Origin: Leptolyngbya sp. Prado105
Lineage (GTDB): Bacteria > Cyanobacteriota > Cyanobacteriia > Leptolyngbyales > Leptolyngbyaceae
NCBI GenBank assembly: GCA_025454375.1
Contig: JALOOO010000004.1
Location: 1 to 60,750 of the forward strand
Length of the DNA stretch: 60,750 bases
Direction of reading: 5' to 3'
Below are positions 20,452 to 39,029 of the stretch, in pieces (position 1 is the first letter of the stretch; every line of letters begins with the position of its first letter). The translations under genes were made by a program, and so were the position numbers. The notes beneath the pieces were generated by a model that saw only the letters and a program-made list of their open reading frames with translations, was not told the origin of the DNA and did not search any database.

Positions 20452-20454
20452 CCT

Positions 20455-22113: not shown

Positions 22114-22119
22114 AAAGCC

Positions 22120-22728: not shown

Positions 22729-22743
22729 CTCTGGAGCAGTCTG

Positions 22744-24403: not shown

Positions 24404-25480
24404 CTAATCCTTAGGGCGATCGACGATCAATCTAGGCTTAGGTGGAGCAGACAGCACAGATTCCCAAAGAGCGCGATATTTTGCAGCCATTGCTTCTGAT
24501 GTCCATTGTTCCAAAGCATCTTGACGCGCTTGCTGCCCGAGTTTTATTCTCAATTCAGACTGATCACGAAACTGTGCTAAGGCTCGAGCAAGTCCATTAA
24601 TGTCGTTTTTCTCAATCAGCAATCCGGTTCTATCAGGGACGATCGCTTCTGGCATACTTCCGACACGAGTTGCGATGACAGGCTTTTCCGCGAGCATTGC
24701 TTCGACCATTGCAAGCGGGAAGCCTTCTGAGCGAGAGGGCATTGCGACAACATCAAATTCTGCTAGGTGAGCGCGGGGATGATCAACCCAACCGCGAAAC
24801 TGAACTCGATCGCGAATTCCAAGCTCGATCGCTAATTTTTCTAGATTCGATCGTTCGTCTCCTTCGCCTAAAATCACGGCTTGAACCTTCTCAACTTGGG
24901 CGAGTGCTTGGAGTAAGATATCGTGTGCTTTCATTGCGTCTAATCGCCCAATGCTGCCAACAATCATGGGAGAACTCGATCGAGGGGGAGCAGGTGCAAC
25001 TGAATCGGGGACACCATTGGGGATTGAGAGGACTGAGTTGCGTCCTAGCGCGTAGAAATTTTCCATCAGTTCTGCGCTTTTTTGACCGACTGCGACATGG
25101 GCATCGACTCGGAGACAGAGTGCGCGAGTTGTCCAAAGTGTGGCTGCATCGGTTGTTCTTAAGGGAAGTTGATCGACTCGAAGGATGCGGAGTTGCGGCA
25201 GAAACAGAGCCGCTGTGAGTCCTAGCCGATTTGCCCAGGGGGTACAGCAGTTAAAATGAATGATATCGAACTTGCGGAAGACGCGCAGGTGATGTGCAAA
25301 GTTAGAGAGTTTGATCGGCTTTGAGTTGGGACGACATTTTGCGATCGCGTCAATGACAGGGGGGTGAATTCCAGCGATTGTAATTTGCATCTCAGGCGGA
25401 ACAGTTGCAAGCAAATTGCCTAAGCTGATCTCTGCTCCTCCAATTCCAGCAGCATCGGTGTAAACGAGAATGTGAGTCAT
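24404..25480 (-). CDS. Glycosyltransferase family 4 (distal gene of heptose/GT operon)
   Basis: 358 aa, GT-B fold. N-terminal domain begins ILVYTDAAGIGGAEISLGN, the glycine-rich acceptor loop; the C-terminal nucleotide-sugar domain has VGSIGRLDAMKAHDIL and the EX7E motif in SRSEGFPLAMVEAMLAEKPV (Glu spaced 8 apart). Retaining mechanism expected. Its start overlaps the preceding gene by 4 bp (ATGA). It is the last gene of the minus-strand operon. Donor and acceptor unknown. Confidence 0.87.
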   Translation of the reverse strand: MTHILVYTDAAGIGGAEISLGNLLATVPPEMQITIAGIHPPVIDAIAKCRPNSKPIKLSNFAHHLRVFRKFDIIHFNCCTPWANRLGLTAALFLPQLRILRVDQLPLRTTDAATLWTTRALCLRVDAHVAVGQKSAELMENFYALGRNSVLSIPNGVPDSVAPAPPRSSSPMIVGSIGRLDAMKAHDILLQALAQVEKVQAVILGEGDERSNLEKLAIELGIRDRVQFRGWVDHPRAHLAEFDVVAMPSRSEGFPLAMVEAMLAEKPVIATRVGSMPEAIVPDRTGLLIEKNDINGLARALAQFRDQSELRIKLGQQARQDALEQWTSEAMAAKYRALWESVLSAPPKPRLIVDRPKD

Positions 25481-26685
25481 TGTACCGCTTGATAAATCGC
25501 TAAATGTCGATCAGCAATGTTCTTCCAACTGAAATCTTGACTAAACTGCTGAGCCGCTTGGCTCAATCGATTTCTCAGGTCGTGATCTTCGAGAAGTAAA
25601 ATCAGCTTTTCGGCGAGAGCATCACTCGATCGAGTCAGGACAAGCTTTAATGCAGGATTGTTTTCTAACTTTGGATCGCTTGGAGTAGAGCGGGTTGCAA
25701 CAATCGGCAGAGCGTGAGCCATGAGTGCGAGTAAAGAACCACTCTTTAGCGTCACTCCATGATTGAAAGGGATCACGCCGATGTCAGAGCCTAAAAGCAT
25801 TTGAGAGACAGATTCGTTCTGCAAATAGCCTGTCATTTCTACAGCAGTGGTCAGTTTGAGGTCTTGGATCAGTTGCTTTAATTTGTTCCAATAGTTTTCT
25901 GCTTGCTCTCCCGGAAGTGATAAGCTCTCGACTCCTCCAATCAACAGTAACCGGGCTTGGGGATGACAAGTGAGAACCTGCTGAAAAGCGTGGAGCAGAA
26001 CTTCCAGTCCTTTAACTGGATGTAAGAAGCCGAAAAAAGCGATGACAGGCGTATCTGTTGACCAGTGATACGATTGGCGCAGATGTTGTCTCGACGAGCC
26101 TCGATCGAGCTTTGCAACCTCGACATTTGCGCCAATCGGAATCTGATGCAGTGAGGCTTTGAGATTTGGCAATCGGGTCTGAATCGTCGTTTGGGCGATT
26201 TCATTGGTTGTAATAATCGCATTGCTATAAGTTAGGAGAAATCCATCTTCTCGATCCCACCAGCCGCGATTCTGTCCCCACATTTTCAAGTGTTCTATCC
26301 ATTGAGGTGGGATGCCTTGCGGTTGCCATTCCCACCAGCCGTATTCATGAATTGTTGTAATGATGGGCGCTTTAAACCTGAGCGATCGCAGTAGCGGAGG
26401 AAGTAAAAACATTGAGCGATCGAATTGATAAGTTCCCGCTGCATGTTGGATGTGTAGAATGTCGGTCTGAGTTTTACAAATCGCTTGGGCAAGAGGAAGT
26501 AAGTTTGCTATATTCCAATGTGCGATCGCGCCTTGAACAGTTGGATCAGAGGTTGCGGCTGCATGAGTGGTCAGAACCGTTGAGTGCATCCCACGCTGGG
26601 TTAGATAGTGTCTGAGATGGGCTGTATAGTCGGCAACACCACAATGCTCTGGTCGATAAGTTCCGGCGATAAAAGTAATGTTCAT
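25477..26685 (-). CDS. Glycosyltransferase family 4
   Basis: 402 aa. Starts MNITFIAGTYRPEHCGVADY, the form common in GT4 enzymes with an N-terminal GVADYT loop. The C-terminal half has FFGFLHPVKGLEVLLHAF and a region (IGVIPFNHGVTLKSGSLLAL) where the usual EX7E is weakly conserved, with Lys-Ser-Gly contacts as in mannosyltransferase-like members. Four-bp overlaps with neighbours on both sides show translational coupling. Confidence 0.83.
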   Translation of the reverse strand: MNITFIAGTYRPEHCGVADYTAHLRHYLTQRGMHSTVLTTHAAATSDPTVQGAIAHWNIANLLPLAQAICKTQTDILHIQHAAGTYQFDRSMFLLPPLLRSLRFKAPIITTIHEYGWWEWQPQGIPPQWIEHLKMWGQNRGWWDREDGFLLTYSNAIITTNEIAQTTIQTRLPNLKASLHQIPIGANVEVAKLDRGSSRQHLRQSYHWSTDTPVIAFFGFLHPVKGLEVLLHAFQQVLTCHPQARLLLIGGVESLSLPGEQAENYWNKLKQLIQDLKLTTAVEMTGYLQNESVSQMLLGSDIGVIPFNHGVTLKSGSLLALMAHALPIVATRSTPSDPKLENNPALKLVLTRSSDALAEKLILLLEDHDLRNRLSQAAQQFSQDFSWKNIADRHLAIYQAVQ

Positions 26686-28691
26686 AGGAGTTCCAGGCTA
26701 GCTTCAACGATCGCAGAAGCAGGAATGTCTAAACATTGCAAAGTGTAAGGACAGGTCATTAAATAGCAAGGACTACAAACCGTGGGTCGGCGGAGTAATC
26801 GGTGATTGCTACGGCGCGGCTGCCATTGAGATTCTTGCTCGGTTCCAGCAAAGAGAACGACTTGCGGCGTTTCCGTTGCGTCGGCAATGTGCATGACTGA
26901 AGTATTGTTTGTTAGAACAAGTTTGGCGTTTGCGATTAAATTTGTCAGTTCTGCAAGCGTTGTTTTTCCAATTTGATCAATCGCTCGATCGCCTAATTTT
27001 GCTAGTAAAGCTTGAGCTTTTGGGCGATCTTTCTCAACGCCTGTTACTACAATGGGATAGCCTGTTTTCTCAGCGAGTGTTAAAGCTGCATCAGCAAAGC
27101 GATCGAGCGAATAGTTGCGAGATTGACAGCTTGTCCAGGGATTGAGAAGAATGTAGTCAGGTAAGATAGGCGGGGGTTCAGGGATTTTGAGCGCGAGATG
27201 TCGATCGAGAACTTTGACCCCAATTGATTCGATGAGTGCGAGATTGCGATCGACTTGATGTACTGAGTCTGGAAGTGCTGAAATCGAATGGGTGAGTGTT
27301 CCGAAGTCTTGTTCTTTTGATTCTCCAAGACGCAGAGAAATGCCTGCGAGAGCGCAAAGTAAGCCAGCAGGATGAGGAGATTGGCTAAAGCTCGTTAGGA
27401 TGATGACTGCATCGAATTCTTTGAGTCTTTCGATCAGTTTCCATTCGCGATCGGGATCGAAGCTAAGCGCGCCTAAGTCTTGCCACAAAACTCGCCAGGG
27501 AAGGATTTCGTCTACCCAAGGGAGCAAGGGAGCAGTTAATGCACCTGAAGGACTTGTCATTAAGGTAATTTTACTTTCAGGTAAGTTTTCTCGCAGGGCT
27601 TTTAGGGCAGGACTTGTCATGATCACATCGCCAATGTTGTCGAGCCGCATGACGAGAAGGTTGCGGACGGATTGCCATTCAAGAAGGAGTCGATCGTTGT
27701 TTTGTGCATCAGCAGACATTCCCGATTTAGCAGGCATTTCCGGAATTGCAGCTAGCACATCCGCAGGCAAAATCGCCTCCATACAGCTATCCCACTCGTA
27801 AGGACACTCACCGCTATACCAGCAGCATTGCTCCGTGAAGTTCTGAATAATCCGCTTTGGGCATTCAGGAAAAGCTTGTAAATCCCGATGAGGAGCAACA
27901 TGACCATAGCGACCCGCCCAAGAAGGACCAAACAACGTAATCGTTGGAACATTCAACGCAGCAGCCATGTGAGCGAGTCCGGTATCATTCGCGATCGCAA
28001 AATCTGCCTCTGCTAAAACACTGGCTAGCTCTCGTAACGAGCCACGCTGCCAAAGCTGAGCCGTTCCACCGATCCCTGAAACAATCTGCTCTGCCTGTGC
28101 TAAATCTTCACCGACTGGAACGATGATTGTGCCCTGATAGCGTTCATTTAAAGCTCGCCCTAGCTCAATAAAACGACCCGCTGACCAGCGTTTAATCTTC
28201 ATGCCCGCCTCTGTGCAGAGAAAGATCAGCGGACGGTACAATGCACCTAACTTTTTACGAGCGATCGCTCTTTCAGTTGGACTCAAGTAAATTTCAGATT
28301 TTGGCATCTCATGGATTACATTTTCTGCTAGTAAAATCTCAAGAAATCTTTGACTGACTAGCTGATTGTCCGGTGGAGAACGCCATAAGTTTGTAATCGC
28401 TGGGTAGTTCTGAAGAATTTCCGCAATTCCGCCATAAGTTGTATCTGAAATAATCAGATCAAATGTTTCTTGAGCAAGTAAGTTCTCTACAGCTTGCCGC
28501 GCCTGTCCTTTTGGGGCACAGATTACAGAGTCAACTAAAGGATCAAGGGTTAGAAGACTATCTCCTGGCGAAAATGTGAGAACAGTCATATGAGCTTGAG
28601 AGTGCGCTCGAGCCAGTGCATGAATGGCGCTGAGCGCAATTACTAAGTCGCCAATTCCTCCTAAAAGCTCAATAAACAGAATCTTTTTCAT
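26682..28691 (-). CDS. Tandem GT9 (heptosyltransferase-family) fusion protein
   Basis: 669 aa made of two full GT9 units. Unit 1 (about 1-330): ELLGGIGDLVIALSAIHALA at the N-terminus and the ADP-heptose-binding-type ANDTGLAHMAAALNVPTI near 243-260. Unit 2 (about 340-669): MRLDNIGDVIMTSPALKALR and TNNTSVMHIADATETPQVVL. Each ends in a Cys-rich tail (CCWYSGECPYEWDSC; CSPCYLMTCPYTLQC), as in other cyanobacterial GT9 proteins. GT9 normally adds heptose from ADP-heptose to LPS core. Two units in one chain could add successive residues. Overlaps its neighbours by 4 bp. Confidence 0.88.
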   Translation of the reverse strand: MKKILFIELLGGIGDLVIALSAIHALARAHSQAHMTVLTFSPGDSLLTLDPLVDSVICAPKGQARQAVENLLAQETFDLIISDTTYGGIAEILQNYPAITNLWRSPPDNQLVSQRFLEILLAENVIHEMPKSEIYLSPTERAIARKKLGALYRPLIFLCTEAGMKIKRWSAGRFIELGRALNERYQGTIIVPVGEDLAQAEQIVSGIGGTAQLWQRGSLRELASVLAEADFAIANDTGLAHMAAALNVPTITLFGPSWAGRYGHVAPHRDLQAFPECPKRIIQNFTEQCCWYSGECPYEWDSCMEAILPADVLAAIPEMPAKSGMSADAQNNDRLLLEWQSVRNLLVMRLDNIGDVIMTSPALKALRENLPESKITLMTSPSGALTAPLLPWVDEILPWRVLWQDLGALSFDPDREWKLIERLKEFDAVIILTSFSQSPHPAGLLCALAGISLRLGESKEQDFGTLTHSISALPDSVHQVDRNLALIESIGVKVLDRHLALKIPEPPPILPDYILLNPWTSCQSRNYSLDRFADAALTLAEKTGYPIVVTGVEKDRPKAQALLAKLGDRAIDQIGKTTLAELTNLIANAKLVLTNNTSVMHIADATETPQVVLFAGTEQESQWQPRRSNHRLLRRPTVCSPCYLMTCPYTLQCLDIPASAIVEASLELL

Positions 28692-29485
28692 ACTTGCAAA
28701 AGCTGAGGAGCATCTTGACTACGATCGACAATAGTAGTGGGCAACTCTTGGTGATAAGCTCCAGAAGGCAGAATTCCGCAGCCGCCATACTTTTCCATCA
28801 CACGCAACTGAGCAAGTACATCTTCACCACAGTGATTCGGCGGAAGTTGCTTCCAGAATTCAAATCCACCGACACTTCTAAGCTTAGTAGTATCATACAA
28901 AACGCAACCTGCGACCCAGGCAACTCGATAAGGACGAGGTTGATCCGGTGTGATGTTCAATTGTTCTTGAACGTGATAAACGTTTGCGGCATTGTGTAAG
29001 CGGTAGCGTTCCCATTCTAGAGTTCTTGATCGGACACTTTCAGGCTGGACTGTACCTTCCCAGAATTCGATCTGTTGCTGATGCGGGCGGATATCTTCTC
29101 GAAAACTTAGCCCAATCAGTGCTGAGCCAACAAATCCACAGTTTTCGGTCTGAATCGTTTGTAGTAAATTCTGAATGTTCCAGGGTTCAAGAATGACATC
29201 ATCATCTAAGCAGAGAACATAGGGCGCAGTCGCTTGATCGAGTAAGAACTGACGCTGTTCTGCCATGCCCCGGCGCGGAAGGTGTTTATGAGCGATGACT
29301 GCGTTTCCATGCGATCGCAGAACGCACACTGCTGCTTTGACTTCTCCAGAATTGAGCGGATCACTGTTTTCCGTTTGGTCAGAGATGATGACGCGAAAAT
29401 CTCGCCAAGTCTGAGCGCATAAGCTAGTTAAAGTAACTGCTAACGCATAAGGTCGATTGTAGGTAGGAATTAAAATATCAATCAT
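28688..29485 (-). CDS. Glycosyltransferase family 2
   Basis: 265 aa GT-A fold inverting transferase. IDILIPTYNRPYALAVTLTS opens the nucleotide-binding half; the metal-binding DXD-type motif is CLDDDVILEP around residues 92-101; the catalytic-base region is HCGEDVLAQLRVM. No transmembrane helices. Coupled to both neighbours by 4-bp overlaps. Sugar specificity cannot be read. Confidence 0.88.
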   Translation of the reverse strand: MIDILIPTYNRPYALAVTLTSLCAQTWRDFRVIISDQTENSDPLNSGEVKAAVCVLRSHGNAVIAHKHLPRRGMAEQRQFLLDQATAPYVLCLDDDVILEPWNIQNLLQTIQTENCGFVGSALIGLSFREDIRPHQQQIEFWEGTVQPESVRSRTLEWERYRLHNAANVYHVQEQLNITPDQPRPYRVAWVAGCVLYDTTKLRSVGGFEFWKQLPPNHCGEDVLAQLRVMEKYGGCGILPSGAYHQELPTTIVDRSQDAPQLLQV

Positions 29486-30540
29486 GCGCGTGCAAGGGTA
29501 GGGAATGCTAAAAGTTCGATCGCAGCTTGGACAACTTGTTCGGGTTTTACTAATCTCAAACAGTGAGAATGTTCTTCTGGGCAGATGCTTTTATAGCAAA
29601 ATCGGCACTCTACATCGTGATAAAGTGTCCGATTCGGTACGTTCCAGGGGGTGTGTTGGGGATTCGTCAGTGCGTAGAGATCCACGACTGGCGTTTGAAC
29701 CGCAGCCGCGATATGAACTGGAGCCGTATTATTTGAGATTAACAACGGCGCAAAGGATAGCAGTGCGCTCAGTTCGCTCAGCGTTAAGCGATCGACGAGT
29801 GAATAGCTCGGCTGTGTCATTCTAGATTGAATCGATCGTACAAGTTCTCGCTCATCTCCCGTCCCAGTAAAGATGATTTGAATTCCCAGTTCTAAGAGAG
29901 ATTCTGCAACCGTTGCGAACAGTTCTGGTGGGTAGCGGCGAGATATTGCAGTTGCACCTGGATGAATGATAATCCAGGGCTGAGGAATGTTCTGCACTAG
30001 GGATTGAACTCGCAGAATCGACTGTCGATCGACGTTTAATTTCAGCCGTGTATCCTCAATTTCACAGCCAATGCTTGCAACAAGATCAAGCTGGCGACGA
30101 ACTTCGTGCCGAATCAACTGATCCGGTTCTGGATCTTTGATCCAGTCGGTTAGTAACTGGTAAGGATTTTCATGACAGTGAGCTAATCTCAGCGGAATGC
30201 CTGCCATGTAGCAGAGAAATGCAGAGGGCAGTGGGTTCTGACTATAAACTGTGAAAATGATTGCGGCATCAAAGTGCGCCTCCCTTAACTGCTCGATCAT
30301 GTCGAATTCGGACTGGCTATCTACCCTGGGTGCTGTCGCTTTGAGCCAGGGCGAATCATACACAATCAGGTGATCAATGTCAGAGATCAGCGGTGCAATG
30401 CACGAACCCGCGCTCGAAGTCATCAGAGTGATTTGCCGATTTTCTCGCTTTAAAGCACGAATCGCAGGAGTCGTCATCACGACATCTCCAATCGTATCGA
30501 GTCGGATGCAAAGAATGTTTTGAGCAGTATTCCAGTTCAT
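29482..30540 (-). CDS. Glycosyltransferase family 9 (heptosyltransferase family)
   Basis: 352 aa from ATG 30540 (MNWNTAQNILCIRLDTIGDV), which overlaps the hldE stop as ATGA; the longer frame to 30696 merely runs antisense into hldE. GT9 markers: LDTIGDVVMTTPAIRALKR, IIHPGATAISRRYPPELFA (donor phosphate contact), and SNNTAPVHIAAAVQTPVVDL. A Cys-rich C-terminal tail (CRFCYKSICPEEHSHC) as in its paralogues. Placed directly after hldE, consistent with use of ADP-heptose; substrate by family inference only. Confidence 0.88.
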   Translation of the reverse strand: MNWNTAQNILCIRLDTIGDVVMTTPAIRALKRENRQITLMTSSAGSCIAPLISDIDHLIVYDSPWLKATAPRVDSQSEFDMIEQLREAHFDAAIIFTVYSQNPLPSAFLCYMAGIPLRLAHCHENPYQLLTDWIKDPEPDQLIRHEVRRQLDLVASIGCEIEDTRLKLNVDRQSILRVQSLVQNIPQPWIIIHPGATAISRRYPPELFATVAESLLELGIQIIFTGTGDERELVRSIQSRMTQPSYSLVDRLTLSELSALLSFAPLLISNNTAPVHIAAAVQTPVVDLYALTNPQHTPWNVPNRTLYHDVECRFCYKSICPEEHSHCLRLVKPEQVVQAAIELLAFPTLARA

Positions 30541-32012
30541 AGCTGCAAGGCGCGAATTTGATGAATTAAGCGAGTCGTCGAACGATTCTCCACATAGGGC
30601 AAAATTTTCACAATGCCGCCTAGCTCCTCGACTAAGTTCGCTTCTGGCAAAGTTTCTCGCCTGTAGTCGCCTCCTTTTACATAAACATTGGGACAAATAA
30701 TCTGAATCAAATTGTGCGGAGTCGGTTCAGCAAAAGGAACAACATGATCAATGCAATGCAGCGCAGCCAGAACCGTTAAACGATCGCACAGTGGATTCAC
30801 AGGTCGATTCTTTCCCTTAAGTCGTTGGATGCTCTCGTCTGTATTGACTCCCACAATCAAAACATCGCCTAAAGCTTTTGCTTGAGTCAGATAAGCGACA
30901 TGTCCCGGATGCAGAATGTCAAAACACCCATTGGTAAAGACAATCCGCTGACCTGCTAATCGATACGATCGAATGGAAGTGGCGAGATCAGATTGATCAA
31001 TGATGATTTTATTAAACTGTGCGTCGTCAATCAGGGCTTGCCGTAAGCCTTCAACATTACAACTCGTTGTCCCCGGTTGCTGAACGACAAGATTTGTAGC
31101 CGTTGCCGCTAGGGTCGCAGCGTCTTCGGTCGAAGCATTGGCGGCAAGCGCGAGCGTAAAGGCGCTGATGTAGGTATCTCCTGCCCCTGATGTTTGATTC
31201 GAGGGTGCAGGGCGGGTTGCTGTGCGAATTGCAGGGTGATTCGATTCAAAGACGATCGCGCCTTCAGTATCGAGCGTTACGGCTACAATTGAGGCTCCGG
31301 TTTGCTCAGACAAAGCTTGGCGATGAGGAACAATCTGATCGACTCGCGATTGGATTTGCTTGGGCAGATTGAGCAGTGCAGTTGCTTCGTCGTAGTTCGG
31401 TTTTACAACGGTTGGCTTGAGCGATCGATATTTTTCTAATCTTCGCGAGTCAATGACTAATTTACACCGATGCTGAGACTGCAATTCGCTCAAAGTCGAG
31501 ATGATGCGATCGCTTAAGATGCCTGCACTATAGTCGGAAACAATAATGGCATCATAGCGAGAGTATTGATTAATTAAGCGATCGATGACTTGCTGTTCTA
31601 AGTCGGGTGGGAGATCGGTTGCAGTGCCTTGATCAAGTCGAACGAGAATTTGTGAGCCTGCTACGACTCGCTGTTTTGCAAGCGTGGCTCGATCGCTCTG
31701 TAAAACATGCTCGGTCGAAACACCTCTTTGCTCTAGTGCAATTCGCAGACTTTCGCCTTCCGGGTCGCGCCCAATTACAGAAAGCAATGCTACTTTTCCA
31801 CCCAGACTGGCAATATTTGCAGCAGTATTTGCGGCACCTCCTGGCAGATCTTGGCACTGATATATGTTGATTACAGGTGCAGGCGCATCTCGACACAAGC
31901 GATCGCTACTGCCGTTCATATAGCGATCGAGAATTGCATCGCCTAGAACGAGAACAGAACAGGATTGCCATTGATCAATCCAGTGAATGAGATCTAGCGT
32001 AGAACGACTCAT
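30537..32012 (-). CDS. hldE: Bifunctional heptose-7-phosphate kinase / heptose-1-phosphate adenylyltransferase HldE
   Basis: 491 aa. N-terminal PfkB-family kinase (about 1-325): VLGDAILDRYMNG, DLPGGAANTAANIASLGGKV, and the anion hole/catalytic base TSGAGDTYISAF. C-terminal nucleotidyltransferase (about 345-491): IVFTNGCFDILHPGHVAYL (HxGH) and VNTDESIQRLKG. Together they convert D-glycero-manno-heptose-7-phosphate to the 1,7-bisphosphate and, after GmhB, the 1-phosphate to ADP-heptose. It overlaps gmhB by 4 bp, and its stop overlaps the next GT9. Confidence 0.93.
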   Translation of the reverse strand: MSRSTLDLIHWIDQWQSCSVLVLGDAILDRYMNGSSDRLCRDAPAPVINIYQCQDLPGGAANTAANIASLGGKVALLSVIGRDPEGESLRIALEQRGVSTEHVLQSDRATLAKQRVVAGSQILVRLDQGTATDLPPDLEQQVIDRLINQYSRYDAIIVSDYSAGILSDRIISTLSELQSQHRCKLVIDSRRLEKYRSLKPTVVKPNYDEATALLNLPKQIQSRVDQIVPHRQALSEQTGASIVAVTLDTEGAIVFESNHPAIRTATRPAPSNQTSGAGDTYISAFTLALAANASTEDAATLAATATNLVVQQPGTTSCNVEGLRQALIDDAQFNKIIIDQSDLATSIRSYRLAGQRIVFTNGCFDILHPGHVAYLTQAKALGDVLIVGVNTDESIQRLKGKNRPVNPLCDRLTVLAALHCIDHVVPFAEPTPHNLIQIICPNVYVKGGDYRRETLPEANLVEELGGIVKILPYVENRSTTRLIHQIRALQL

Positions 32013-32557
32013 AATCTTTGTAGGGAGGGTTGACGGATTGCTAGGATGATTTGTGCGGCTTCATGCAGATTAGAGACAATATGGTGCGGTAAGCGATCGC
32101 TTTGAAGTTGCCATTCGGTTTCGTTGCCGTTGTCGATGAGAATGGAGCGGCAGCCTGCGGCTCGACCAGCTGCAACATCTTTGAGAATGACTCCAAAAAA
32201 CCAGGACTGGCTTAGATCGATGTCGTGATCTAAAGCGGCTTGATGCAGCATTCCGGGTTTTGGTTTCCGGCAGTTGCAGTGTGCTAAATGGGGACAGTAG
32301 TAAAAATCGCAAAGCTCGACTCCAATTTCATTCAGCATGGAGTGAATTTTTTGCATCACAGGGATTAGAGCCGATTCGGGGAAATAACCGCGTGCAACTC
32401 CAGACTGGTTAGAAATGACGATCAAGGGATAGTCTGATAAGAGCTTGAGGGCTGCGATCGCACCCTGGGTGAATGTTATGCGATCGGGATCGACATTGTA
32501 GGGAATGTCTTCGATCAAGGTTCCGTCTTTGTCGAGAAAGATAGCAGGGTGTGGCAT
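32009..32557 (-). CDS. gmhB: D-glycero-D-manno-heptose-1,7-bisphosphate 7-phosphatase GmhB
   Basis: 182 aa HAD phosphatase of the histidinol-phosphatase-like subclass. Motif I FLDKDGTLIEDIPYNV (Asp nucleophile, Asp acid), VISNQSGVARGYF, the zinc-loop ligands in CPHLAHCNCRKPKPGM, and GVILKDVAAGRAAGC as motif IV. It removes the 7-phosphate between the two HldE reactions. Motif IV reads LKD where the family usually has GD, a mild oddity. Overlaps hldE by 4 bp. Confidence 0.9.
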   Translation of the reverse strand: MPHPAIFLDKDGTLIEDIPYNVDPDRITFTQGAIAALKLLSDYPLIVISNQSGVARGYFPESALIPVMQKIHSMLNEIGVELCDFYYCPHLAHCNCRKPKPGMLHQAALDHDIDLSQSWFFGVILKDVAAGRAAGCRSILIDNGNETEWQLQSDRLPHHIVSNLHEAAQIILAIRQPSLQRL

Positions 32558-32566
32558 AGTTCTCTA

Positions 32567-33292
32567 TTAGGGCCAAGAAGTCTCTCGCATTGGCAAAACG
32601 GTTACCTCCGGAATCACCGTCTCCCCAGGCTGCATCAATACATATCGAATCGTCTCTGCTACATTCCGCGGATCTTGTAGTACTCCTGGATCAGTTTCAG
32701 GAAAGCGATCGAGAATAAATGGCGTTCTCATTCCTCCGGCTACTATCGCACTCACTTTTACTCCATACGATCGCGCTTCGACATGCAGTGCATGGTTTAA
32801 TCCCATGAGTCCCCACTTGCTTGCATGATAAGCAGAGGCATTCGCCCAAGCGCGTTTTGCAGCCGTTGAAGCAACATTGACGATATGCCCGCCTCCTTGC
32901 TGCTTCATCATGGGCAGCAGCATTTTAGCTAGGACAAAGGGCGCTCTCAAATTCACTTGCATCACGCGATCCCAATCCGCGATCGATAATTCCTCGATCG
33001 GGACAGTCTTATCTGTCCCTGCATTGTTGATCAGTACGTCAATTCGACCATATTGATCGACAATTTTTTGAATCGCAGTCTCAATCTGCTGATCCTGTGT
33101 AATGTCCAGTGGAAGTGCCATTGCCTCAAATCCGCGATCGCGAATTTCTCTCACCACTTTCTCCGCCATTTCTCCGTTTAAGTCGGCTGCAATCACGGTT
33201 GCTCCCGCTTCTGCTAAAACCTGACAGATTGCGGCTCCTAATCCTTGTCCGCCACCTGTGACAAACACAATCTTATTGTTCAAAGTTTCCAT
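32567..33292 (-). CDS. Classical short-chain dehydrogenase/reductase
   Basis: 241 aa, NAD(P)-binding Rossmann fold. TGGGQGLG at residues 12-19, an acidic Asp after beta-2 (AADLNGE) pointing to NAD, NNAGT near 88-92, catalytic Ser (NVASTAA), and YHASK (Tyr, Lys). The 3-oxoacyl-ACP reductase/glucose dehydrogenase-like subgroup. It is not the extended ~310-residue HldD epimerase. Lying between gmhB and the GT4-GmhA fusion (gaps of 9 and 14 bp), it may modify a sugar in this pathway; substrate unknown. Confidence 0.85.
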   Translation of the reverse strand: METLNNKIVFVTGGGQGLGAAICQVLAEAGATVIAADLNGEMAEKVVREIRDRGFEAMALPLDITQDQQIETAIQKIVDQYGRIDVLINNAGTDKTVPIEELSIADWDRVMQVNLRAPFVLAKMLLPMMKQQGGGHIVNVASTAAKRAWANASAYHASKWGLMGLNHALHVEARSYGVKVSAIVAGGMRTPFILDRFPETDPGVLQDPRNVAETIRYVLMQPGETVIPEVTVLPMRETSWP

Positions 33293-33306
33293 TATCTCAA
33301 TCGCTC

Positions 33307-35217
33307 CTAGAGTGTTTCGGCAAGGGTTGGAATGTTAGAACTGAGTTCGGTCGCTGCAACGCGAAGCATTTTGGGTTCTTCTGAATGAATCTCATTTTTC
33401 AGAAGCTGCTGCTCAATCAGTTCACACAGTAAATGAATGATCAGAATCTGCACTTCTTGAATTCGTTGACCTTCCTGCGATGGAACGACGATCGGAATCG
33501 TTGCTTTACGATAGACATCGCCTCCATCTTTTCCCAGTAATGCGATCGAGGTTAAGTTCAAACGTTCCGCGACATCAAAGGCTGCAATTAGATTCTGAGA
33601 ACGCCCGCTCGTACTAATCCCAATTACTAAATCACCCGGCTTCGCAAAGGTTTCAATCTGACGCGCAAAGATATCTTCGTAGCCAATATCATTCGCCCAA
33701 GCGGTTAAAAAGGTCGTATCAGCGCTGAGTGCCATCGCAGGCAATCCTGCTCGATGATGGGGATAAGCAAACCGCCCTACTAGCTCAGCCGCAAAATGTT
33801 GGGCATCCGCAGCACTCCCGCCATTGCCACAAATCAAAACCTTGCTACCTTTGAAAAAGCATTGGCTCATCGCTTGCGAGGCAGATTGAATTGCCGGACG
33901 AAGTAATCGCTTTGATCGATGAATCGCTTTGATCAAGGAATCAAATCCTGCATCGATTAAAGCAACCTGCTCAGTCTCAATCGGTTTCAAGTCGCCTAGC
34001 ACTTCTTCATACAAAGCCGCAACCGCACTCGTGACTTTCTGCCAGGTAAAATGATCCTGCGATCGCCGAATCCCTTGACGACCCATCAAACTAATCAGAT
34101 GGGGATGTTCAAACAGATGCACTAAGCGATCTGCGATCGCTTCTGGCTGATTCGGAGGAATTAAAAACCCGGTTTCACCTGACTTGACTGTAAATTTAAC
34201 GCCACCCACATTTGCCCCAATGACTGGAGTACCGCAAGCCATTGCTTCGATTGGCGTGATTCCAAACGGCTCATACCAGGGAGTTGTAATGAAAACATCC
34301 GCAGCACTATAGTAATATTTCAGCACTTCTCGACCTTTACGACCGACAAAAGTTACTTGAGATTCGATTCCTAGCTCTTGAGCGATCGCAATTAATCGCC
34401 CAATTTCTGGAGTTGCTTCCGCATCGGGTGAATCCGTCTCGCCCCCAACAATCAGCAACCGTGCAGGAGTCCGCTCTTGCTTCAAAAACTCAGCAAACCC
34501 TCGAATCACCGTATCGACTCCTTTGCGAGGAACCATCCGCCCCAGTTGTAAAATCAACCGCTCATGCGAAGGGAGTCCCAAAGTTAAGCGGGCACGAATC
34601 TTATCGATCGCCCAAAATTCCGTCGGATCAAACCCACAAGGAATAATGCAAATTCGACTCGGATCGGCGTTATAGAAAGCAAGTAGGTCTTCTCGATCTT
34701 GAGGACATTCTGCAATGATGTAATCGGCTTCTCTCACCAGTCGATCTTCGATCGCAAACCGCTCATCCGGAAAGCTATCGGCAGACCCTTGATACTGTCG
34801 CCGCACTCGCCCCAATGCGTGAAACGTAATCACAAAGGGCGTTCCTGTCATGCGTTTAATTTCTGCTGCAACTAAACCTGACATCCAGAAATTCGCATGA
34901 ATTAAGTCATAGGCACGAGTCTCACACCACTCTAGAACTTCATGCGTAAATTCTTCCATGTGAGGAAGTAATGCTTCTTTTGGCAAGGAGACGGGCGCTC
35001 CAGCAGAGATATGAATGACTCGTACCCCTTGTAGCCAGTCCACAACTTCTGGGAGCGCAATATCATCGCGACGAGTAAACACATCCACGTCATAACCGAT
35101 CGCTGCCAAATGCTTTGCAAGTTGTCCAACATAAACATTTTGACCACCGCTATCAACGCCGCCAAATATTCCGAGAGGAGACGCATGTTCGCTAATGAGA
35201 GCAATTCGTTTTGTCAT
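33307..35217 (-). CDS. GT4 glycosyltransferase fused to phosphoheptose isomerase (GmhA)
   Basis: 636 aa with two domains. Residues ~1-410 are a GT4 of the sucrose-phosphate-synthase/MshA-like type: GGVDSGGQNVYVGQLAKHLA, ITFHALGRVRRQY, LQLGRMVPRKGVDTVIRGF and the EX7E motif EPFGITPIEAMACGTPVIG. Residues ~430-610 are a SIS-fold GmhA: ICGNGGSAADAQHFAAELVG with the substrate-loop Asp/His, and GISTSGRSQNLI. GmhA makes D-glycero-manno-heptose-7-phosphate from sedoheptulose-7-phosphate, the first pathway step. The junction is in frame with no internal stop. No separate gmhA occurs in the window. Confidence 0.9.
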   Translation of the reverse strand: MTKRIALISEHASPLGIFGGVDSGGQNVYVGQLAKHLAAIGYDVDVFTRRDDIALPEVVDWLQGVRVIHISAGAPVSLPKEALLPHMEEFTHEVLEWCETRAYDLIHANFWMSGLVAAEIKRMTGTPFVITFHALGRVRRQYQGSADSFPDERFAIEDRLVREADYIIAECPQDREDLLAFYNADPSRICIIPCGFDPTEFWAIDKIRARLTLGLPSHERLILQLGRMVPRKGVDTVIRGFAEFLKQERTPARLLIVGGETDSPDAEATPEIGRLIAIAQELGIESQVTFVGRKGREVLKYYYSAADVFITTPWYEPFGITPIEAMACGTPVIGANVGGVKFTVKSGETGFLIPPNQPEAIADRLVHLFEHPHLISLMGRQGIRRSQDHFTWQKVTSAVAALYEEVLGDLKPIETEQVALIDAGFDSLIKAIHRSKRLLRPAIQSASQAMSQCFFKGSKVLICGNGGSAADAQHFAAELVGRFAYPHHRAGLPAMALSADTTFLTAWANDIGYEDIFARQIETFAKPGDLVIGISTSGRSQNLIAAFDVAERLNLTSIALLGKDGGDVYRKATIPIVVPSQEGQRIQEVQILIIHLLCELIEQQLLKNEIHSEEPKMLRVAATELSSNIPTLAETL

Positions 35218-35222
35218 AGTTT

Positions 35223-36185
35223 TTAGTAGCTATTTACGAGAAATACCGATTCGCAAACCCTTTCAAAAACTGCATTCCAGTCTTGAATAAAGCGCTGAAT
35301 CCCAAAACGCGATCGAGCGCTTTCTTTGGCGGCGGCTCCAAGTTGTTGCGCGAGTTCGGGATGGTCAATTAGCACTTGCATCTGTTCGATCAAGCGATCT
35401 AAATTAGTATCGACGTAGCCTGAGACTCCGTTTTCGATCACAGTAGCTAGCTCGGTTGTCGCAAGACCTACGATCGGTAAGCCTGCCATCATGGCTTCAC
35501 AGACAGCTAAGCCTAAGCTGGTGTAGCGCACTGGATGAAAGAAAAATCGATACTGTGCCTGAAATTCTGGAAGTTGGGCGTGAGGAATTTCGCCGAGTCC
35601 ACCCATAGATTCTGCACCCATCCCTACGAGATCCAGCGGAATCGATCGCTTTACCTGCTTAAAGATATCGACTCCAAGCCTTCTGCCTCTTGTTCTCAGT
35701 CCGTTTGCAACCACAAGCCCTCTGGGAATGCTGCCTGTATATTCGACTTCTGGTTGGGTTACTCCATGTTCAATGACACAGGTTGGTGTGTTGCCACAGT
35801 CCCACATCAATCGATTGAAGTGCGTGACATGGACAAGCAACGTTTCAGCGTCATCGACAATATGCTGAGTATCGGTGGGATGTTCGCGAGGTGGATCATG
35901 CTCTAAGTAAAGCTTAGGAAGCTGCCGCTGGACATCAGATAAGATTTCAAACTGATCTTCGAGATAGTTCCGGCGCGATTGGAATAAAATACAGTCAAAT
36001 TCCTGTGATCGCACTGCTTCGGCTGGAATGTCATGCACATTATCGCCCCAGGCAAAGCCAGGTAGCCGACCGCCATAGCCTTCTGGATGTCCAGGCTTCG
36101 TTGGTAAGTAAAAGTCGTGTGGAGCCTGGGTGAGATAGTAAAGATAACTGCCATGAACATGCCAGGTTAGAATTCTAAGTCGCAT
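35223..36185 (-). CDS. Glycosyltransferase, GT4-like
   Basis: 320 aa. N-terminal half is divergent (RILTWHVHGSYLYYLTQAPH, then LYLEHDPPREHPTDTQHIV). The C-terminal half shows a GT-B sugar-nucleotide domain: IPRGLVVANGLRTRGRR, RFFFHPVRYTSLGLAVCEAM with Glu in the EX7E-like position, and MAGLPIVGLATTELATVI. Start ATG 36185 overlaps the upstream truncated GT9 by 19 bp. Sequences of this shape are seen with cyanobacterial exopolysaccharide clusters; acceptor unknown. Confidence 0.8.
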   Translation of the reverse strand: MRLRILTWHVHGSYLYYLTQAPHDFYLPTKPGHPEGYGGRLPGFAWGDNVHDIPAEAVRSQEFDCILFQSRRNYLEDQFEILSDVQRQLPKLYLEHDPPREHPTDTQHIVDDAETLLVHVTHFNRLMWDCGNTPTCVIEHGVTQPEVEYTGSIPRGLVVANGLRTRGRRLGVDIFKQVKRSIPLDLVGMGAESMGGLGEIPHAQLPEFQAQYRFFFHPVRYTSLGLAVCEAMMAGLPIVGLATTELATVIENGVSGYVDTNLDRLIEQMQVLIDHPELAQQLGAAAKESARSRFGIQRFIQDWNAVFERVCESVFLVNSY

Positions 36186-36544
36186 GATTTTAGTAAATGT
36201 AAATGATAGTCAGCAGCAGGAACCGCAATCGGTTTAATCCAAGTTGATAGCACTCCTCCAGCAAATTCCACAGATTGCCCAATTCGGATCGGAATGCCTG
36301 CGAGATAGCACAAATAAGCGAGAGAATAGCAGGATTGATGCGGCTGAGTGAAAATCAGCACTGCTTGAAATGCCCTCTGACGCAGAATTTCAATCAAATC
36401 AAATGGAGTCGAAATCTTCTGATTATCAAGACAATATTCGTCTCTGTTCCAAGTGAGCATCGATCGATAGCAGCATGTTTCTAACAGAGGTTCAATCTCC
36501 GCAGCATCAAAGCTACAAGCAATCAAAAGGTCTTTAAGCCGCAT
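36167..36544 (-). pseudogene. Truncated GT9-like fragment
   Basis: 125 codons from ATG 36544, overlapping the upstream GT9 stop by 11 bp. Its centre (LRQRAFQAVLIFTQPHQSCY then SLAYLCYLAGIPIRIG) aligns with residues ~95-165 of the complete GT9 at 29482-30540 and with unit 2 of the tandem GT9. It lacks both the N-terminal IGD loop and the whole C-terminal ADP-heptose-binding half, so it should not be an active transferase. It could be a decayed copy or a stand-alone partner piece kept by translational coupling. Confidence 0.6.
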
Positions 36545-37523
36545 ACGACACCCCCAAATCGAGTAAGTCAAAGGCTTCTCTCAGGACGTGATCAGGAAGT
36601 GCTCGATCGAGTGTGACAATTCGATGCTTCTGACGATCGAGCGGCGACCAGCGAGCCGGATCAGACTTTGAAAAAATCACAACGCTTTTAACTTGCAGCG
36701 CATCTACTAGATGAGACACGCCTGTATCATTACAAATCAAGAGGTGTGACTGTTTGAGTAAGCTTGCTAGGGTGTCTAGATCTGTCTTACCTGTCAAATC
36801 AATAACAGCACCATTCATGGCTTTAGCAATGCTCTGGTTTAAGACAGCTTCTGAATCGGTTCCCGTCAAGACAATTTGAAACCCCTGAATTGATAGTACC
36901 TCTGCCACCTGAGCAAAAAACTGGGGTGACCAGCATTTATCAGCAGCACTCGCACCTGGGTGAAGACAGAGATAAGGACGATCGAGAACAGGGTTCCAAT
37001 CTGCCGCCTTGACTGGAAATTCTAGATGCTCTCCACAAGTCGGAATGTTCAAATATTCCAGCAATCGCAGCGATCGTCGAACTTCCGGTTCATCATCTGG
37101 ATATGGGAAAAAATTAGAGTGAGGAGGCTGACCTAAACAGAAACCAGCCGTTACTTTTGCTCCTAATTGCAAGACAAGCGGGTTCATACAAGAGCCGTTC
37201 CCGTGCATTTGCAGTGCAAGATCAAACTGATATGACCTGGCTTCTGCTAAAAATGCAGCAGTTCGGCTTGCCTGGTAAGGCACTTCGGGAATGTTCGGAA
37301 ATCCAGGAAACTCCAGCCAACGATCGAGAAACTCATCGAATCGACTGACGAGTTCTCGTACAGATGGTAATCCGATCAGCGTGATTTCAGCCCTCGGAAA
37401 AGCTTTCCGAATCGCTCTCAAGGCAGGAACGCTACAGAGAAAATCGCCCAGACCGGGCAATGCTCGAACGATCGCTATTTTTTGAGGAGGACAAGCATTC
37501 ATCACAGCGTCAATAAAATTCAT
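36534..37523 (-). CDS. Glycosyltransferase family 9 (first gene of heptose/GT operon)
   Basis: 329 aa. VRALPGLGDFLCSVPALRAI is the GT9 N-terminal loop; LCLHPGASAADKCWSPQFFA contacts the donor; ICNDTGVSHLVDALQVKSVV is the ADP-heptose-binding block. No Cys-rich tail, unlike the other GT9 proteins here. ATG 37523 lacks a clear ribosome-binding site and an internal ATG seven codons in is possible. It begins the minus-strand operon, divergent from the CdaR-like regulator gene. Confidence 0.87.
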   Translation of the reverse strand: MNFIDAVMNACPPQKIAIVRALPGLGDFLCSVPALRAIRKAFPRAEITLIGLPSVRELVSRFDEFLDRWLEFPGFPNIPEVPYQASRTAAFLAEARSYQFDLALQMHGNGSCMNPLVLQLGAKVTAGFCLGQPPHSNFFPYPDDEPEVRRSLRLLEYLNIPTCGEHLEFPVKAADWNPVLDRPYLCLHPGASAADKCWSPQFFAQVAEVLSIQGFQIVLTGTDSEAVLNQSIAKAMNGAVIDLTGKTDLDTLASLLKQSHLLICNDTGVSHLVDALQVKSVVIFSKSDPARWSPLDRQKHRIVTLDRALPDHVLREAFDLLDLGVSYAA

Positions 37524-37564: not shown

Positions 37565-37623
37565 ATTGTGCATTTGCCTAAATCGCAGCTTACTATCTGC
37601 CGTAAAAATTGTGCAAATGCCTA
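37565..37623. promoter_or_regulatory. Paired 16-bp direct repeats upstream of the heptose/GT operon
   Basis: ATTGTGCATTTGCCTA (37565-37580) and ATTGTGCAAATGCCTA (37608-37623) match at 14 of 16 positions. Their starts are 43 bp apart, about four helical turns. The cores GCATTTGC and GCAAATGC are also reverse complements. They sit 42-100 bp before the first operon gene and could be operators for the divergent regulator; unproven. The remaining ~210 bp of this 312-bp gap hold repeat copy C and otherwise nothing recognised. Confidence 0.4.
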
Positions 37624-37778
37624 CGAGAAAAGCATTTCTCTACCCTATGATTTTAACTTTACTTCAAAAGATAGATGATCTAGTAATTTTTCAATTCTTT
37701 TGGGCATTTCTCTCTTTAGACTGACTCTCCAAATCGAAGAAAGTCTTATAAAACAAATGATTCGACCTTTGCTAAAAA

Positions 37779-37835: not shown

Positions 37836-39029
37836 ATGCTAAAGATAGAGCCTAAACTAGAAATGTCCGATCGCTTTTTACAAATTGCTAGCACTGTAAC
37901 AGGAACGATCGCAAAACTGCTCTATGTGCCTGTCTCTGTGACGAATGGGCGCGGAATTGTTGTAACCAGCAGCGAAGTTCAACAGATTGGGACTCTGTTG
38001 AGTTTGCAAGAGCAGATTGATCAAGCGCTTCGTATCCCATTTCGCTATGGGTCAGAAGCCGGAGAAGTCATTGTCGGAATGTCCTCTCACCCGGCTCTAC
38101 TCTCCCCCCAACTCACTCAGGCTCTAGTCGAGTTAATCGTGCAGCAAACGACGGCTCAAAGCTCGTCCAATCATTATGAGCTAAAAAATCAATTTATTCA
38201 TGATTTACTCCACTATCAAGGGGGAGACGAGTCTATTATTTTTAATCAAGCAAAACGCCTAGGAATTGATCTCAGTCCGCCTCGTGCAGTAATTCTGATT
38301 GATGCGGCACACTATATTTTAGAGGACGCCTCAGATCTCGATCCGCAACTGCAAGCACTCAAACAACAGCGCCGCATCCAGACCATTATCAATAGTATTA
38401 TTAGTTTCTTTCACCTTCCCAACGACACGATCTGTGCGGATTTGGGACAAGGTAGAGTCTGTGTCCTAAAAGCAAGCGATACTAAAAATTTGGACTTGTG
38501 GGCAGGCTGTAGCGATCGCCAAAGACATGATTCGTCTTGGGCAAATCTCTCTGCGCTCAAACGAGCGGCTGATGCGCTGCGAGTGCGACTGCATGAAGAT
38601 ACAGGCAGTGCGATTACAATCGGAATTGGGCGGTATCATCCCGGCTTAGAAGGACTCGCTCGATCGTATGAAGATGCAAGAGTAGCACTGTCTTTGGGCA
38701 ATCGGCTACAGCGGCACAATCATGTCCATTGTCTTTCAGAATTAGGAATTGTAGCCTTTGTCGGGATTGCAGATGAAACGGTCAAAATCGAACTTGCAAA
38801 ATACTTACTGAGTCCGCTCGATCATGAGCCAGAGCTAATCGCAACGATCGAGGCTTTCTTTCTAGAAGATTGCTGCTGTGGCTCAACGGCAAAACGCTTG
38901 TATATTCATCGCAACACGCTCACCTATCGACTCGAAAAGATCGCATCACTCATTGGTTTAGATCCACGTAAGTTTGATGATGCAGTTCAGATCCGACTCT
39001 CTTTACTTTTAAGATCGCTTACTAAGTAG
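37836..39029 (+). CDS. PucR/CdaR-family transcriptional regulator
   Basis: 397 aa. An N-terminal sugar-diacid-recognition-like domain (about 10-110; FLQIASTVTGTIAKLLYVPV, RIPFRYGSEAGEVIVGM), a middle GGDEF-related region (IGIGRYHPGLEGLARSYEDA), and a C-terminal PucR helix-turn-helix (about 345-395; GSTAKRLYIHRNTLTYRLEK). Such proteins activate or repress sugar-acid or carbohydrate genes on sensing a small ligand. It is divergent from the heptose/GT operon and upstream of the exoprotein gene, so either could be its target. Confidence 0.83.
   Translation: MLKIEPKLEMSDRFLQIASTVTGTIAKLLYVPVSVTNGRGIVVTSSEVQQIGTLLSLQEQIDQALRIPFRYGSEAGEVIVGMSSHPALLSPQLTQALVELIVQQTTAQSSSNHYELKNQFIHDLLHYQGGDESIIFNQAKRLGIDLSPPRAVILIDAAHYILEDASDLDPQLQALKQQRRIQTIINSIISFFHLPNDTICADLGQGRVCVLKASDTKNLDLWAGCSDRQRHDSSWANLSALKRAADALRVRLHEDTGSAITIGIGRYHPGLEGLARSYEDARVALSLGNRLQRHNHVHCLSELGIVAFVGIADETVKIELAKYLLSPLDHEPELIATIEAFFLEDCCCGSTAKRLYIHRNTLTYRLEKIASLIGLDPRKFDDAVQIRLSLLLRSLTK

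What the first reader, a model, noticed from the sequence alone, without database searches (positions are those of the whole stretch)
24404..37523. Twelve-ORF ADP-heptose / glycosyltransferase operon in a cyanobacterium
All ORFs run on the minus strand, and seven of them (24404-32557) are joined by six successive 4-bp overlaps. GmhA (fused), HldE and GmhB form an ADP-heptose pathway, together with five GT9-type regions, three stand-alone GT4-like enzymes, one GT2 and an SDR. Cyanobacterial LPS cores are generally described as poor in or free of heptose, so what these heptoses decorate is an open question. A heptose-containing exopolysaccharide, S-layer or secreted glycoconjugate is the most likely output. 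No Wzx/Wzy, ABC exporter or ligase is present, so export must be encoded elsewhere.
Basis: partly seen in the sequence, partly recalled or inferred. Interest (0 to 1): 0.8.

Follow-up and report, generated by a model that had tools for sequence, protein, structure and literature searches.

The report
Regulated heptose-sugar operon in cyanobacteria
A dozen co-oriented genes in a cyanobacterium appear to make an unusual seven-carbon sugar and build it into a still unknown sugar chain; the same gene set, probably with its own control switch, recurs in many other cyanobacteria although reviews say these bacteria lack heptose in their outer coat.

Summary
In detail: twelve minus-strand ORFs at 24404-37523, six 4-bp overlaps, GmhA, HldE, GmhB and GT9 regions, the fifth only half a domain. 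The grouping is not chance. In 37 other genomes picked by their GT4-GmhA hit (i), j is beside it in 37, h and l in 36, and the order recurs wholly or in part. Fusion-type GmhA occurs in 48 of 388 genomes of the class. Pathway active-site motifs are conserved. No HldD reaches its cut-off in 21 carriers, and no WaaA (Kdo transferase) is found in 26 genomes. (1) The GT4 fused to GmhA is of the sucrose-phosphate-synthase/MshA type, whose known acceptors are sugar phosphates. (2) A CdaR/PucR-type regulator accompanies 29 of 37 loci, and paired palindromes 43 bp apart stand upstream of l or j in 28 of 37 regions scanned. In congeners the set is split over several loci but largely retained. The final glycan and its destination are unknown: lipid-linked core-like glycan, soluble heptoside and exopolysaccharide remain open. 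No paper in my (partly capped) search listings describes this cluster.

The parts
24404..25480 (-). a: stand-alone GT4 glycosyltransferase
   Evidence: PF00534 E 6.9e-36; found in 14 of 37 comparison loci, many cut by contig or fetch ends
25477..26685 (-). b: stand-alone GT4 glycosyltransferase
   Evidence: PF00534 E 6e-19; 16 of 37 loci
26682..28691 (-). c: tandem GT9-GT9 protein; N-half with a DTG motif, C-half with an NNTS variant
   Evidence: PF01075 two stretches, TIGR02195 140.2 bits over cut-off 134.6; 25 of 37 loci (one search says 26, one of which, L081, is a k-like fragment); motif counts, n=17
28688..29485 (-). d: GT2 glycosyltransferase
   Evidence: PF00535 E 1.6e-16; 26 of 37 loci
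29482..30540 (-). e: GT9 heptosyltransferase-like (start at internal ATG, 4-bp overlap with hldE)
   Evidence: PF01075 E 8.7e-34; TIGR02195 132.3 bits, just below cut-off 134.6; orthologue in 46 of 388 class genomes
30537..32012 (-). f: HldE, heptose-7-P kinase + heptose-1-P adenylyltransferase
   Evidence: TIGR02199 196.7 bits over 181.5; GAGD in 34/34, HxGH in all 20 of 34 sequences that hold the domain; at 27 of 37 loci, 19 full and 8 kinase-only
32009..32557 (-). g: GmhB-like heptose bisphosphate phosphatase
   Evidence: PRK08942 135.2 bits, cut-off 178; DxD and C-x-H...C-x-C loop in 30/30; 28 of 37 loci
32567..33292 (-). h: classical short-chain dehydrogenase, Ser-Tyr-Lys present; not an HldD-type extended SDR
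   Evidence: PF00106 E 1.7e-60; S142, Y155, K159 and D37 in 37/37; 36 of 37 loci
33307..35217 (-). i: fusion of SPS/MshA-type GT4 (about 1-408) and GmhA sedoheptulose-7-P isomerase (about 421-608)
   Evidence: TIGR03449 295.6 bits (cut-off 462.5), PRK13936 196.6 bits; PDB 6kih sucrose-phosphate synthase and 1tk9 GmhA; active-site residues 35/35; 37 of 37 loci, by selection
35223..36185 (-). j: divergent GT4-like glycosyltransferase
   Evidence: PF00534 E 4.4e-11; 37 of 37 loci
36167..36571 (-). k: half-GT9 (N-domain only, likely start ATG 36544), without the C-terminal domain
   Evidence: hhalign to e residues 3-164, prob 98.9; AlphaFold pLDDT 86.5; Foldseek: GT9 3tov at rank 4, prob 0.99, E 0.017, TM 0.56, ranks 1-3 unrelated names; at least 26 of 37 loci
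36534..37523 (-). l: GT9 heptosyltransferase-like, first gene of the operon
   Evidence: PF01075 E 6.8e-29; TIGR02193 82.5 bits, cut-off 185.3; NDTG in 37/37; 36 of 37 loci
37565..37582 (-). probable operator, site 2 (core 12-mer 37565-37576, CAAATGCACAAT; palindromic mate degenerate)
   Evidence: exact 14-mer KGCAWWTGCMCAAT at 3 places in the whole own genome, two of them here
37608..37625 (-). probable operator, site 1 (core 12-mer 37608-37619, CATTTGCACAAT), 43 bp from site 2
   Evidence: pairs with this spacing in 19 of 23 lineage-A regions upstream of l and 9 of 14 lineage-B regions upstream of j
37836..39029 (+). m: CdaR/PucR-type transcriptional regulator, divergent from l
   Evidence: PF13556 E 4.3e-18, PF17853 E 8.5e-17; CdaR 86.9 bits, below cut-off 612; a homologue at 29 of 37 loci, inside the operon in lineage B

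Best explanation
The locus is one regulated pathway unit. GmhA (C-terminal half of i) takes sedoheptulose 7-phosphate (a Calvin-cycle intermediate) to D-glycero-D-manno-heptose 7-P. [quoted passage not shown] Lacking HldD, the cell uses this D,D form directly. Up to nine glycosyltransferase domains (four GT9, four GT4, one GT2, plus the half-GT9) then assemble a heptose-rich oligosaccharide in the cytoplasm on a Kdo-free acceptor. I judge a lipid acceptor at the inner membrane (lipid A disaccharide or a glycolipid), exported by housekeeping machinery, the likeliest, because the set resembles an LPS-core (waa) set without polymerase, flippase or ligase. The CdaR/PucR-type regulator m probably controls it through the paired palindromes. 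Shown: gene content, conservation, conserved active-site motifs, co-retention, no HldD over cut-off and no WaaA hit in the genomes searched, conserved paired motif. Inferred: substrate flow, acceptor, export, regulator-operator contact.
For: Pathway; GmhA H474/E478/Q587/H595 in 35/35 (roles from passages of PMC5387315, placed by the 5i01 alignment); HldE and GmhB motifs. HldE-type adenylyltransferase domain in 35 of 35 fusion-bearing genomes tested, against 2 of 5 without the fusion. HldD over cut-off in 0 of 21 carriers; PF04413 (WaaA N-domain, name recalled) in 0 of 26 genomes, 3 of 14 control genomes positive. Linkage: order conserved; where the locus is split in congeners, f/e, c/b/a and an HldC lie elsewhere in those examined; fusion and e co-occur 41/7/5/335 of 388, and the 5 e-only genomes hold the same operon, cut at contig ends or incomplete at i. 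Regulation.
Against: No product, transcript or enzyme assay exists here. Several members miss curated equivalog cut-offs. Cyanobacterial LPS is mostly reported without heptose. The e protein and the C-half of c have NNT in place of DTG, and the His after DTG in the N-half of c is Arg in 12 of 17 sequences, so donors may differ. The SPS/MshA-type GT4 fits a soluble sugar-phosphate acceptor better than a lipid. In the 388-genome survey the adenylyltransferase was not found in 5 of 48 fusion genomes (drafts of 410-680 contigs, and the tool scored at most 9 candidates a genome). The adenylyltransferase also occurs in 92 genomes without the fusion. Genomes are related, so Fisher values overstate significance.
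Confidence: 0.45

Rival explanations
1. The product is a soluble heptose-containing oligosaccharide or secondary metabolite primed on a sugar phosphate. The SPS-like GT4 half of the fusion glycosylates the isomerase's substrate or product (sedoheptulose 7-P or manno-heptose 7-P), as sucrose-phosphate synthase does with fructose 6-P, and the other transferases extend it in the cytoplasm.
For: Closest solved relatives of the GT4 half are Tll1590 sucrose-phosphate synthase (E 6.1e-75) and MshA-type 3c48/3c4q (about 2e-65; the name MshA is recalled). The TeSPS positions that bind the sugar phosphate (R105, R178) and are needed for catalysis (H158, E331) are K, R, H, E in 35 of 35 fusions (roles from passages of PMC7264703). 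The cluster's GT4s a, b, j and four of five more distant GT4s of the same genome lack both phosphate positions; the fifth has an Arg at one (alignment of distant GT4s is uncertain). Fusion to a ketose-phosphate isomerase. No lipid-carrier or export gene within the operon.
Against: The Tyr and Ser of SPS beside the site are replaced by Phe110 and Ala134, invariant in the 14 fusions, so part of the site may be lost. Such a priming step does not explain why GmhB, HldE and GT9s are co-retained. The genome has a separate SPS-like gene with the SPS residues (L052 9193-10617).
Confidence: 0.25
2. An exopolysaccharide or O-antigen repeat unit containing heptose, polymerised and exported by Wzx/Wzy or ABC genes located elsewhere.
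For: Nine GT domains can build a repeat unit; that cyanobacterial export genes can be unlinked is recalled, not from a call.
Against: No initiating phosphoglycosyl transferase, flippase or polymerase among the 12 ORFs or the genes recurring with them. Unlabelled flanking ORFs of the 37 loci were not family-searched and the whole genome was not searched for exporters.
Confidence: 0.17
3. Protein heptosylation, for instance of the neighbouring two-partner-secretion exoprotein (39077-41605).
For: TPS domain E 3.6e-65 beside the regulator; a distant TPS protein also lies near the c-b-a locus in two congeners (L174, L175).
Against: The GT9s fall far below the autotransporter O-heptosyltransferase model (c 18.8, l 26.1 bits against 200); no homologue of this TPS gene was labelled in the stretches fetched around the other loci.
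Confidence: 0.06
4. The GmhA/HldE/GmhB homologues act on another sugar and no heptose is made.
For: Scores below several equivalog cut-offs.
Against: Zinc, kinase, nucleotidyl and phosphatase motifs conserved; three pathway steps together with GT9s.
Confidence: 0.07

Closest known systems
LPS inner-core (waa/rfa) and ADP-L,D-heptose pathway of Proteobacteria (recalled)
   Same: GmhA, HldE, GmhB and several GT9 plus GT4/GT2 enzymes; no flippase or polymerase in the set
   Different: No WaaA hit and no HldD over cut-off in the genomes tested; GmhA fused to a GT4; CdaR/PucR-type regulator and probable operator; accessory, in 48 of 388 genomes
Cyanobacterial sucrose-phosphate synthase Tll1590 (PDB 6kih) and MshA-type 3c4q
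   Same: GT4 fold and active-site residues of the N-half of i
   Different: Fused to GmhA; Phe110 and Ala134 where Tll1590 has Tyr and Ser; the genome has a separate SPS-like gene
GDP-D-alpha-heptose route (HddC, reported for Synechocystis slr0007; passages of PMC5946031)
   Same: Starts from S7P through GmhA (recalled)
   Different: Here the nucleotidyltransferase is of the HldE (ADP, beta) type
Other GmhA-type isomerases in the phylum
   Same: 29-57% identical isomerase domains (84 matching genomes including the 3 fusions)
   Different: Open frames of 179-368 aa, not 540-770 aa, and at most 164.7 bits against 211 or more for the fusion type (a few fusion-type frames are shorter, 390-465 aa, in drafts)

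Membership tests
ADP-heptose biosynthesis pathway | GmhA zinc/catalytic residues | tested here: met
   H474, E478, Q587, H595 in 35 of 35; roles PMC5387315; family score below cut-off
ADP-heptose biosynthesis pathway | HldE kinase and adenylyltransferase | tested here: met
   TIGR02199 over cut-off; kinase model 242.3 below 345; GAGD and HxGH conserved
ADP-heptose biosynthesis pathway | GmhB phosphatase | tested here: inconclusive
   Best model 135.2 bits, cut-off 178; HAD and zinc-loop motifs conserved
ADP-heptose biosynthesis pathway | HldD 6-epimerase (L,D branch) | tested here: not met
   0 of 21 genomes over cut-off, best 137.9 vs 274.6 bits; related extended SDRs below cut-off in all 21
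Classical LPS inner core (waa) cluster | Kdo transferase WaaA in the genome | tested here: not met
   PF04413 in 0 of 26 genomes (21 carriers, 5 non-carriers); E. coli, Caulobacter, Bacteroides positive
Classical LPS inner core (waa) cluster | Heptose attached to lipid-A core | not testable with these tools
   needs chemistry
SPS/MshA GT4 clade | Catalytic His/Glu and basic residues for phosphate and UDP | tested here: met
   7 positions invariant in 35 of 35, R105 being K
Sucrose-phosphate synthase | Tyr and Ser of Tll1590 beside the sugar-phosphate site | tested here: not met
   F110 and A134 invariant in 14 fusions and differing from Tll1590; that these two contact the phosphate is recalled, not from a call
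Autotransporter heptosyltransferase (BAHT) | TIGR04414 over cut-off | tested here: not met
   18.8 and 26.1 bits against 200
Wzx/Wzy or ABC polysaccharide cluster | Flippase, polymerase or exporter within the operon | tested here: not met
   none among the 12 ORFs or the genes recurring with them; rest of the genome and unlabelled flanks not searched

The most novel reading that the evidence does not exclude
The GT4-GmhA fusion is a bifunctional enzyme that glycosylates a heptose phosphate (or sedoheptulose 7-P) in the manner of sucrose-phosphate synthase. It draws directly on a Calvin-cycle intermediate to start a new class of D,D-heptose oligosaccharides, made only when a CdaR/PucR-type sensor acting at a double operator senses a metabolite.
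Probability: 0.2. Interest if true: 0.8.

Novelty: new variant of a known kind. Interest (0 to 1): 0.6.

Why it matters
Reviews describe cyanobacterial LPS as free of heptose and Kdo, with few exceptions. A conserved operon for D,D-heptose transfer in 48 of 388 sampled genomes of the class (25 of 160 genera) makes that statement directly testable in cultured strains; Phormidium tenue FACHB-886 carries it. It offers a defined entry point: one fusion gene, one regulator and one probable operator. ADP-D,D-heptose is described as a molecule that triggers innate immunity (abstract of PMC10948575 as shown in the listing), so its production by cyanobacteria could bear on how their extracts act on animal cells.

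Tried and rejected
Rejected: k as a random broken pseudogene; a half-GT9 is retained in at least 26 of 37 loci, although absent between l and j in a subclade (L077, L079, L080, L082-L084). Phage or plasmid origin: the GmhA part of the fusion matched 163 plasmid and 11 phage records, all below 60% identity and none covering 80% of the query; a viral-contig scan with the fusion alignment found none. Composition as evidence of transfer: none, GC 47.7% in the operon against 47.4 and 47.8% in the flanks, although the tree puts the window's copy inside another family. Protein heptosylation: considered, scored low. The 8-mer TGCMCAAT is not enriched in the window (7 found, 5.17 expected), and exact 14-mer matches also occur in the two non-carriers searched (G060 5, G308 2); only pairing and position carry the case. 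A wider regulon: of the 30 sites held as loci most lie inside an ORF or have no 43-bp partner (some are the operon's own promoter), and no exporter was found that way. The AlphaFold model of the fusion was poor (mean pLDDT 70.8, pTM 0.54) and not used. The class-wide e search gave false negatives (one search scored at most 5 candidates a genome; G448 has e in L114). Papers: search listings, of which searches list only the best 25 of 30, 12 of 22, 12 of 35, 15 of 97 and 20 of 34; passages only of PMC4515613, PMC4390846, PMC5177637, PMC3087551, PMC7264703, PMC9909042, PMC5387315, PMC4971617, PMC2211374, PMC5946031. No title, abstract start or passage that I saw describes the GT4-GmhA fusion or this operon; subscription papers and preprints were not searched.


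Full report
Observation. Family scans give, from the promoter side: l GT9, k short protein, j GT4, i GT4-GmhA fusion, h SDR, g GmhB-like, f HldE, e GT9, d GT2, c GT9-GT9, b GT4, a GT4. It lacks the C-terminal domain that in GT9 enzymes binds ADP-heptose (recalled).

Conservation. I compared 37 other genomes (41 loci fetched, 4 duplicates dropped). They were picked because they hit i or its GmhA part, so i in 37 of 37 is by construction. Beside it stand j in 37, l and h in 36, m (regulator) in 29, g and e in 28, f in 27 (19 full, 8 kinase-only), k and d in 26, c in 25 (one search counts 26; L081 is a k-like fragment), b in 16, a in 14. The order l-k-j-i-h-g-f-e-d-c-b-a recurs, complete or in part. 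Several loci stop at contig ends or at the edge of the fetched stretch, so the lower counts are minima. Named carriers are Phormidium tenue FACHB-886, MAG C42_A2020_086, filamentous cyanobacterium CCP2, MAG RM1_2_2, and MAG SM1_4_3 (a 3-kb contig, not among the 37). In 6 congeners (G309-G314) and G185 the main locus holds only l, k, m, j, i, h. Of the rest, kinase plus e were found elsewhere in G309, G310, G311, G312, G314 and G185 (with g in G185), c-b-a in G309 and G310 and a, b and the C-half of c in G185, and a stand-alone HldC in those six. I did not look for d, nor for g in the congeners.

Distribution. The fusion-type GmhA domain (211 bits or more) is in 48 of 388 genomes of the class and 25 of 160 genera; in 3 of 292 genomes drawn from the phylum, where 84 have some GmhA; and in 17 of 42 genomes of the order, in one of which (G319) the ORF is split. 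An orthologue of e is in 46 of 388. The two overlap 41/7/5/335. The five e-only genomes hold this operon, cut by contig ends or, in G340, incomplete at i. Of the seven fusion-only genomes G448 has e (L114) and G313 a piece of it. Genomes are related, so the Fisher p of 2e-42 is only descriptive. The HldE/HldC adenylyltransferase domain is in 135 of 388, so it is wider than the operon: 43 of the 48 fusion genomes and 92 others. In a separate search it was in 35 of 35 fusion genomes, against 2 of 5 non-carriers.

Active sites. In 35 fusion proteins GmhA residues H474, E478, Q587 and H595 are invariant; they align (5i01) with the zinc and catalytic residues H61, E65, Q175, H183 of the gonococcal enzyme (passages of PMC5387315). 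HldE GAGD is in 34 of 34 and HxGH in all 20 sequences that carry the domain; GmhB and SDR motifs are kept too. l and the N-half of c have the DTG motif expected at an ADP-heptose site (recalled from WaaC/WaaF), but in c the following His is Arg in 12 of 17; e and the C-half of c have NNT.

Which heptose. Of 21 carriers none has an HldD over cut-off (best 137.9 bits against 274.6), so the D-glycero form should be the end product. Of 26 genomes none has a PF04413 (WaaA) match. A classical Kdo-heptose core is therefore unlikely, in line with reviews saying that cyanobacterial LPS lacks Kdo and heptose (passages). The same review reports D-glycero-D-manno-heptose in Spirulina platensis LPS.

The fusion. 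The GT4 half is closest among solved structures to the cyanobacterial sucrose-phosphate synthase Tll1590 and then to 3c48/3c4q (MshA, name recalled). The Tll1590 residues reported to hold the sugar phosphate (R105, R178), UDP (R249, R253, E339) and to be needed for catalysis (H158, E331; passages of PMC7264703) are K80, R153, R227, R231, E324, H133, E316 in 35 of 35 fusions. The GT4s a, b and j lack the two phosphate positions. Of seven other GT4 hits of the genome, the two most similar to SPS keep both, one keeps an Arg at the first, and four keep neither. Against a full SPS-like site, Tyr and Ser of Tll1590 are Phe110 and Ala134, invariant in the 14 fusions. The genome has a separate SPS-like gene (L052 9193-10617). 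A sugar-phosphate acceptor is plausible, not shown.

Regulation. m, a CdaR/PucR-type regulator (below the CdaR cut-off), stands at 29 of 37 loci: where present in lineage A, upstream or divergent; in the 14 lineage-B loci inside the operon before j. Shared words upstream of l in 20 lineage-A regions led to the consensus CAWWTGCMCAAT, half of an 18-bp palindrome. Pairs 41-44 bp apart occur in 19 of 23 lineage-A regions. Leaving out four discovery loci, 15 of 32 regions have a pair (13 of the 32 are lineage B, without pairs at this place), while 200 rounds of dinucleotide shuffles never gave more than 1. Some of these regions had contributed to the words, so that test is not fully blind. In lineage B the same pair stands upstream of j, at or near the end of m: 9 of 14 loci, shuffles at most 1. 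I looked there after one exact hit in G309, and several of these 14 are close relatives. In the window's genome the exact 14-mer occurs three times, two of them here; other genomes, non-carriers G060 and G308 included, have one to nine unpaired or paired matches. That m binds the pair is inference.

Origin. This suggests transfer or deep paralogy. GC content gives no hint. The plasmid, phage and viral searches found no fusion-type match.

Interpretation. Pathway and unit are well supported (I would put about 0.85 on D,D-heptose transfer by a co-regulated set). The destination is not. The set looks like a core-assembly cluster without polymerase, flippase or ligase, which favours a lipid-linked Kdo-free oligosaccharide; the SPS-like fusion favours a soluble, phosphosugar-primed heptoside. 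Flanking genes of some comparison loci were looked at only as sequences, without family searches, so a linked exporter in single loci is not excluded.

Noticed in passing
window 37565-37625 and upstream of l or j in related loci: Paired 18-bp palindromes (ATTGKGCAWWTGCMCAAT) 43 bp apart; a candidate operator for the CdaR/PucR-type regulator.
   Followed up: yes
window 36167-36571 and at least 26 other loci: A conserved half-length GT9 (N-domain only) next to a full GT9; may be an acceptor-binding partner or a decaying paralogue.
   Followed up: partly
L015 18705-20042, L070 13901-15241, L100 17770-19113, L108 1503-2843: A glutathione-reductase-like gene (named by eye, no family search) lies downstream of c in four loci, in three of them before b.
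   Followed up: no
L159-L167: Stand-alone HldC with similar-sized neighbours (a response-regulator-like ORF on one side, by eye) in most of the nine loci fetched; HldC without the operon is common in the class.
   Followed up: no
L085, L086: G306 and G327 carry a second, unfused GmhA next to a GmhB-like gene, in addition to the fusion locus.
   Followed up: no
window 39077-41605: Two-partner-secretion exoprotein beside the regulator; distant TPS proteins also lie near the split c-b-a locus of two congeners (L174, L175).
   Followed up: partly
window 18864-24246: Cytochrome c oxidase genes (subunits I and II; the third by eye) followed by a GMC oxidoreductase, convergent with the operon.
   Followed up: no
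L079 9463-10977: A transposase-like ORF (by eye) sits between i and h in one relative.
   Followed up: no
other classes of the phylum, (for example G130, G182, G196): GmhA-type domains in open frames of about 330-370 aa, so other, shorter GmhA fusions may exist.
   Followed up: no
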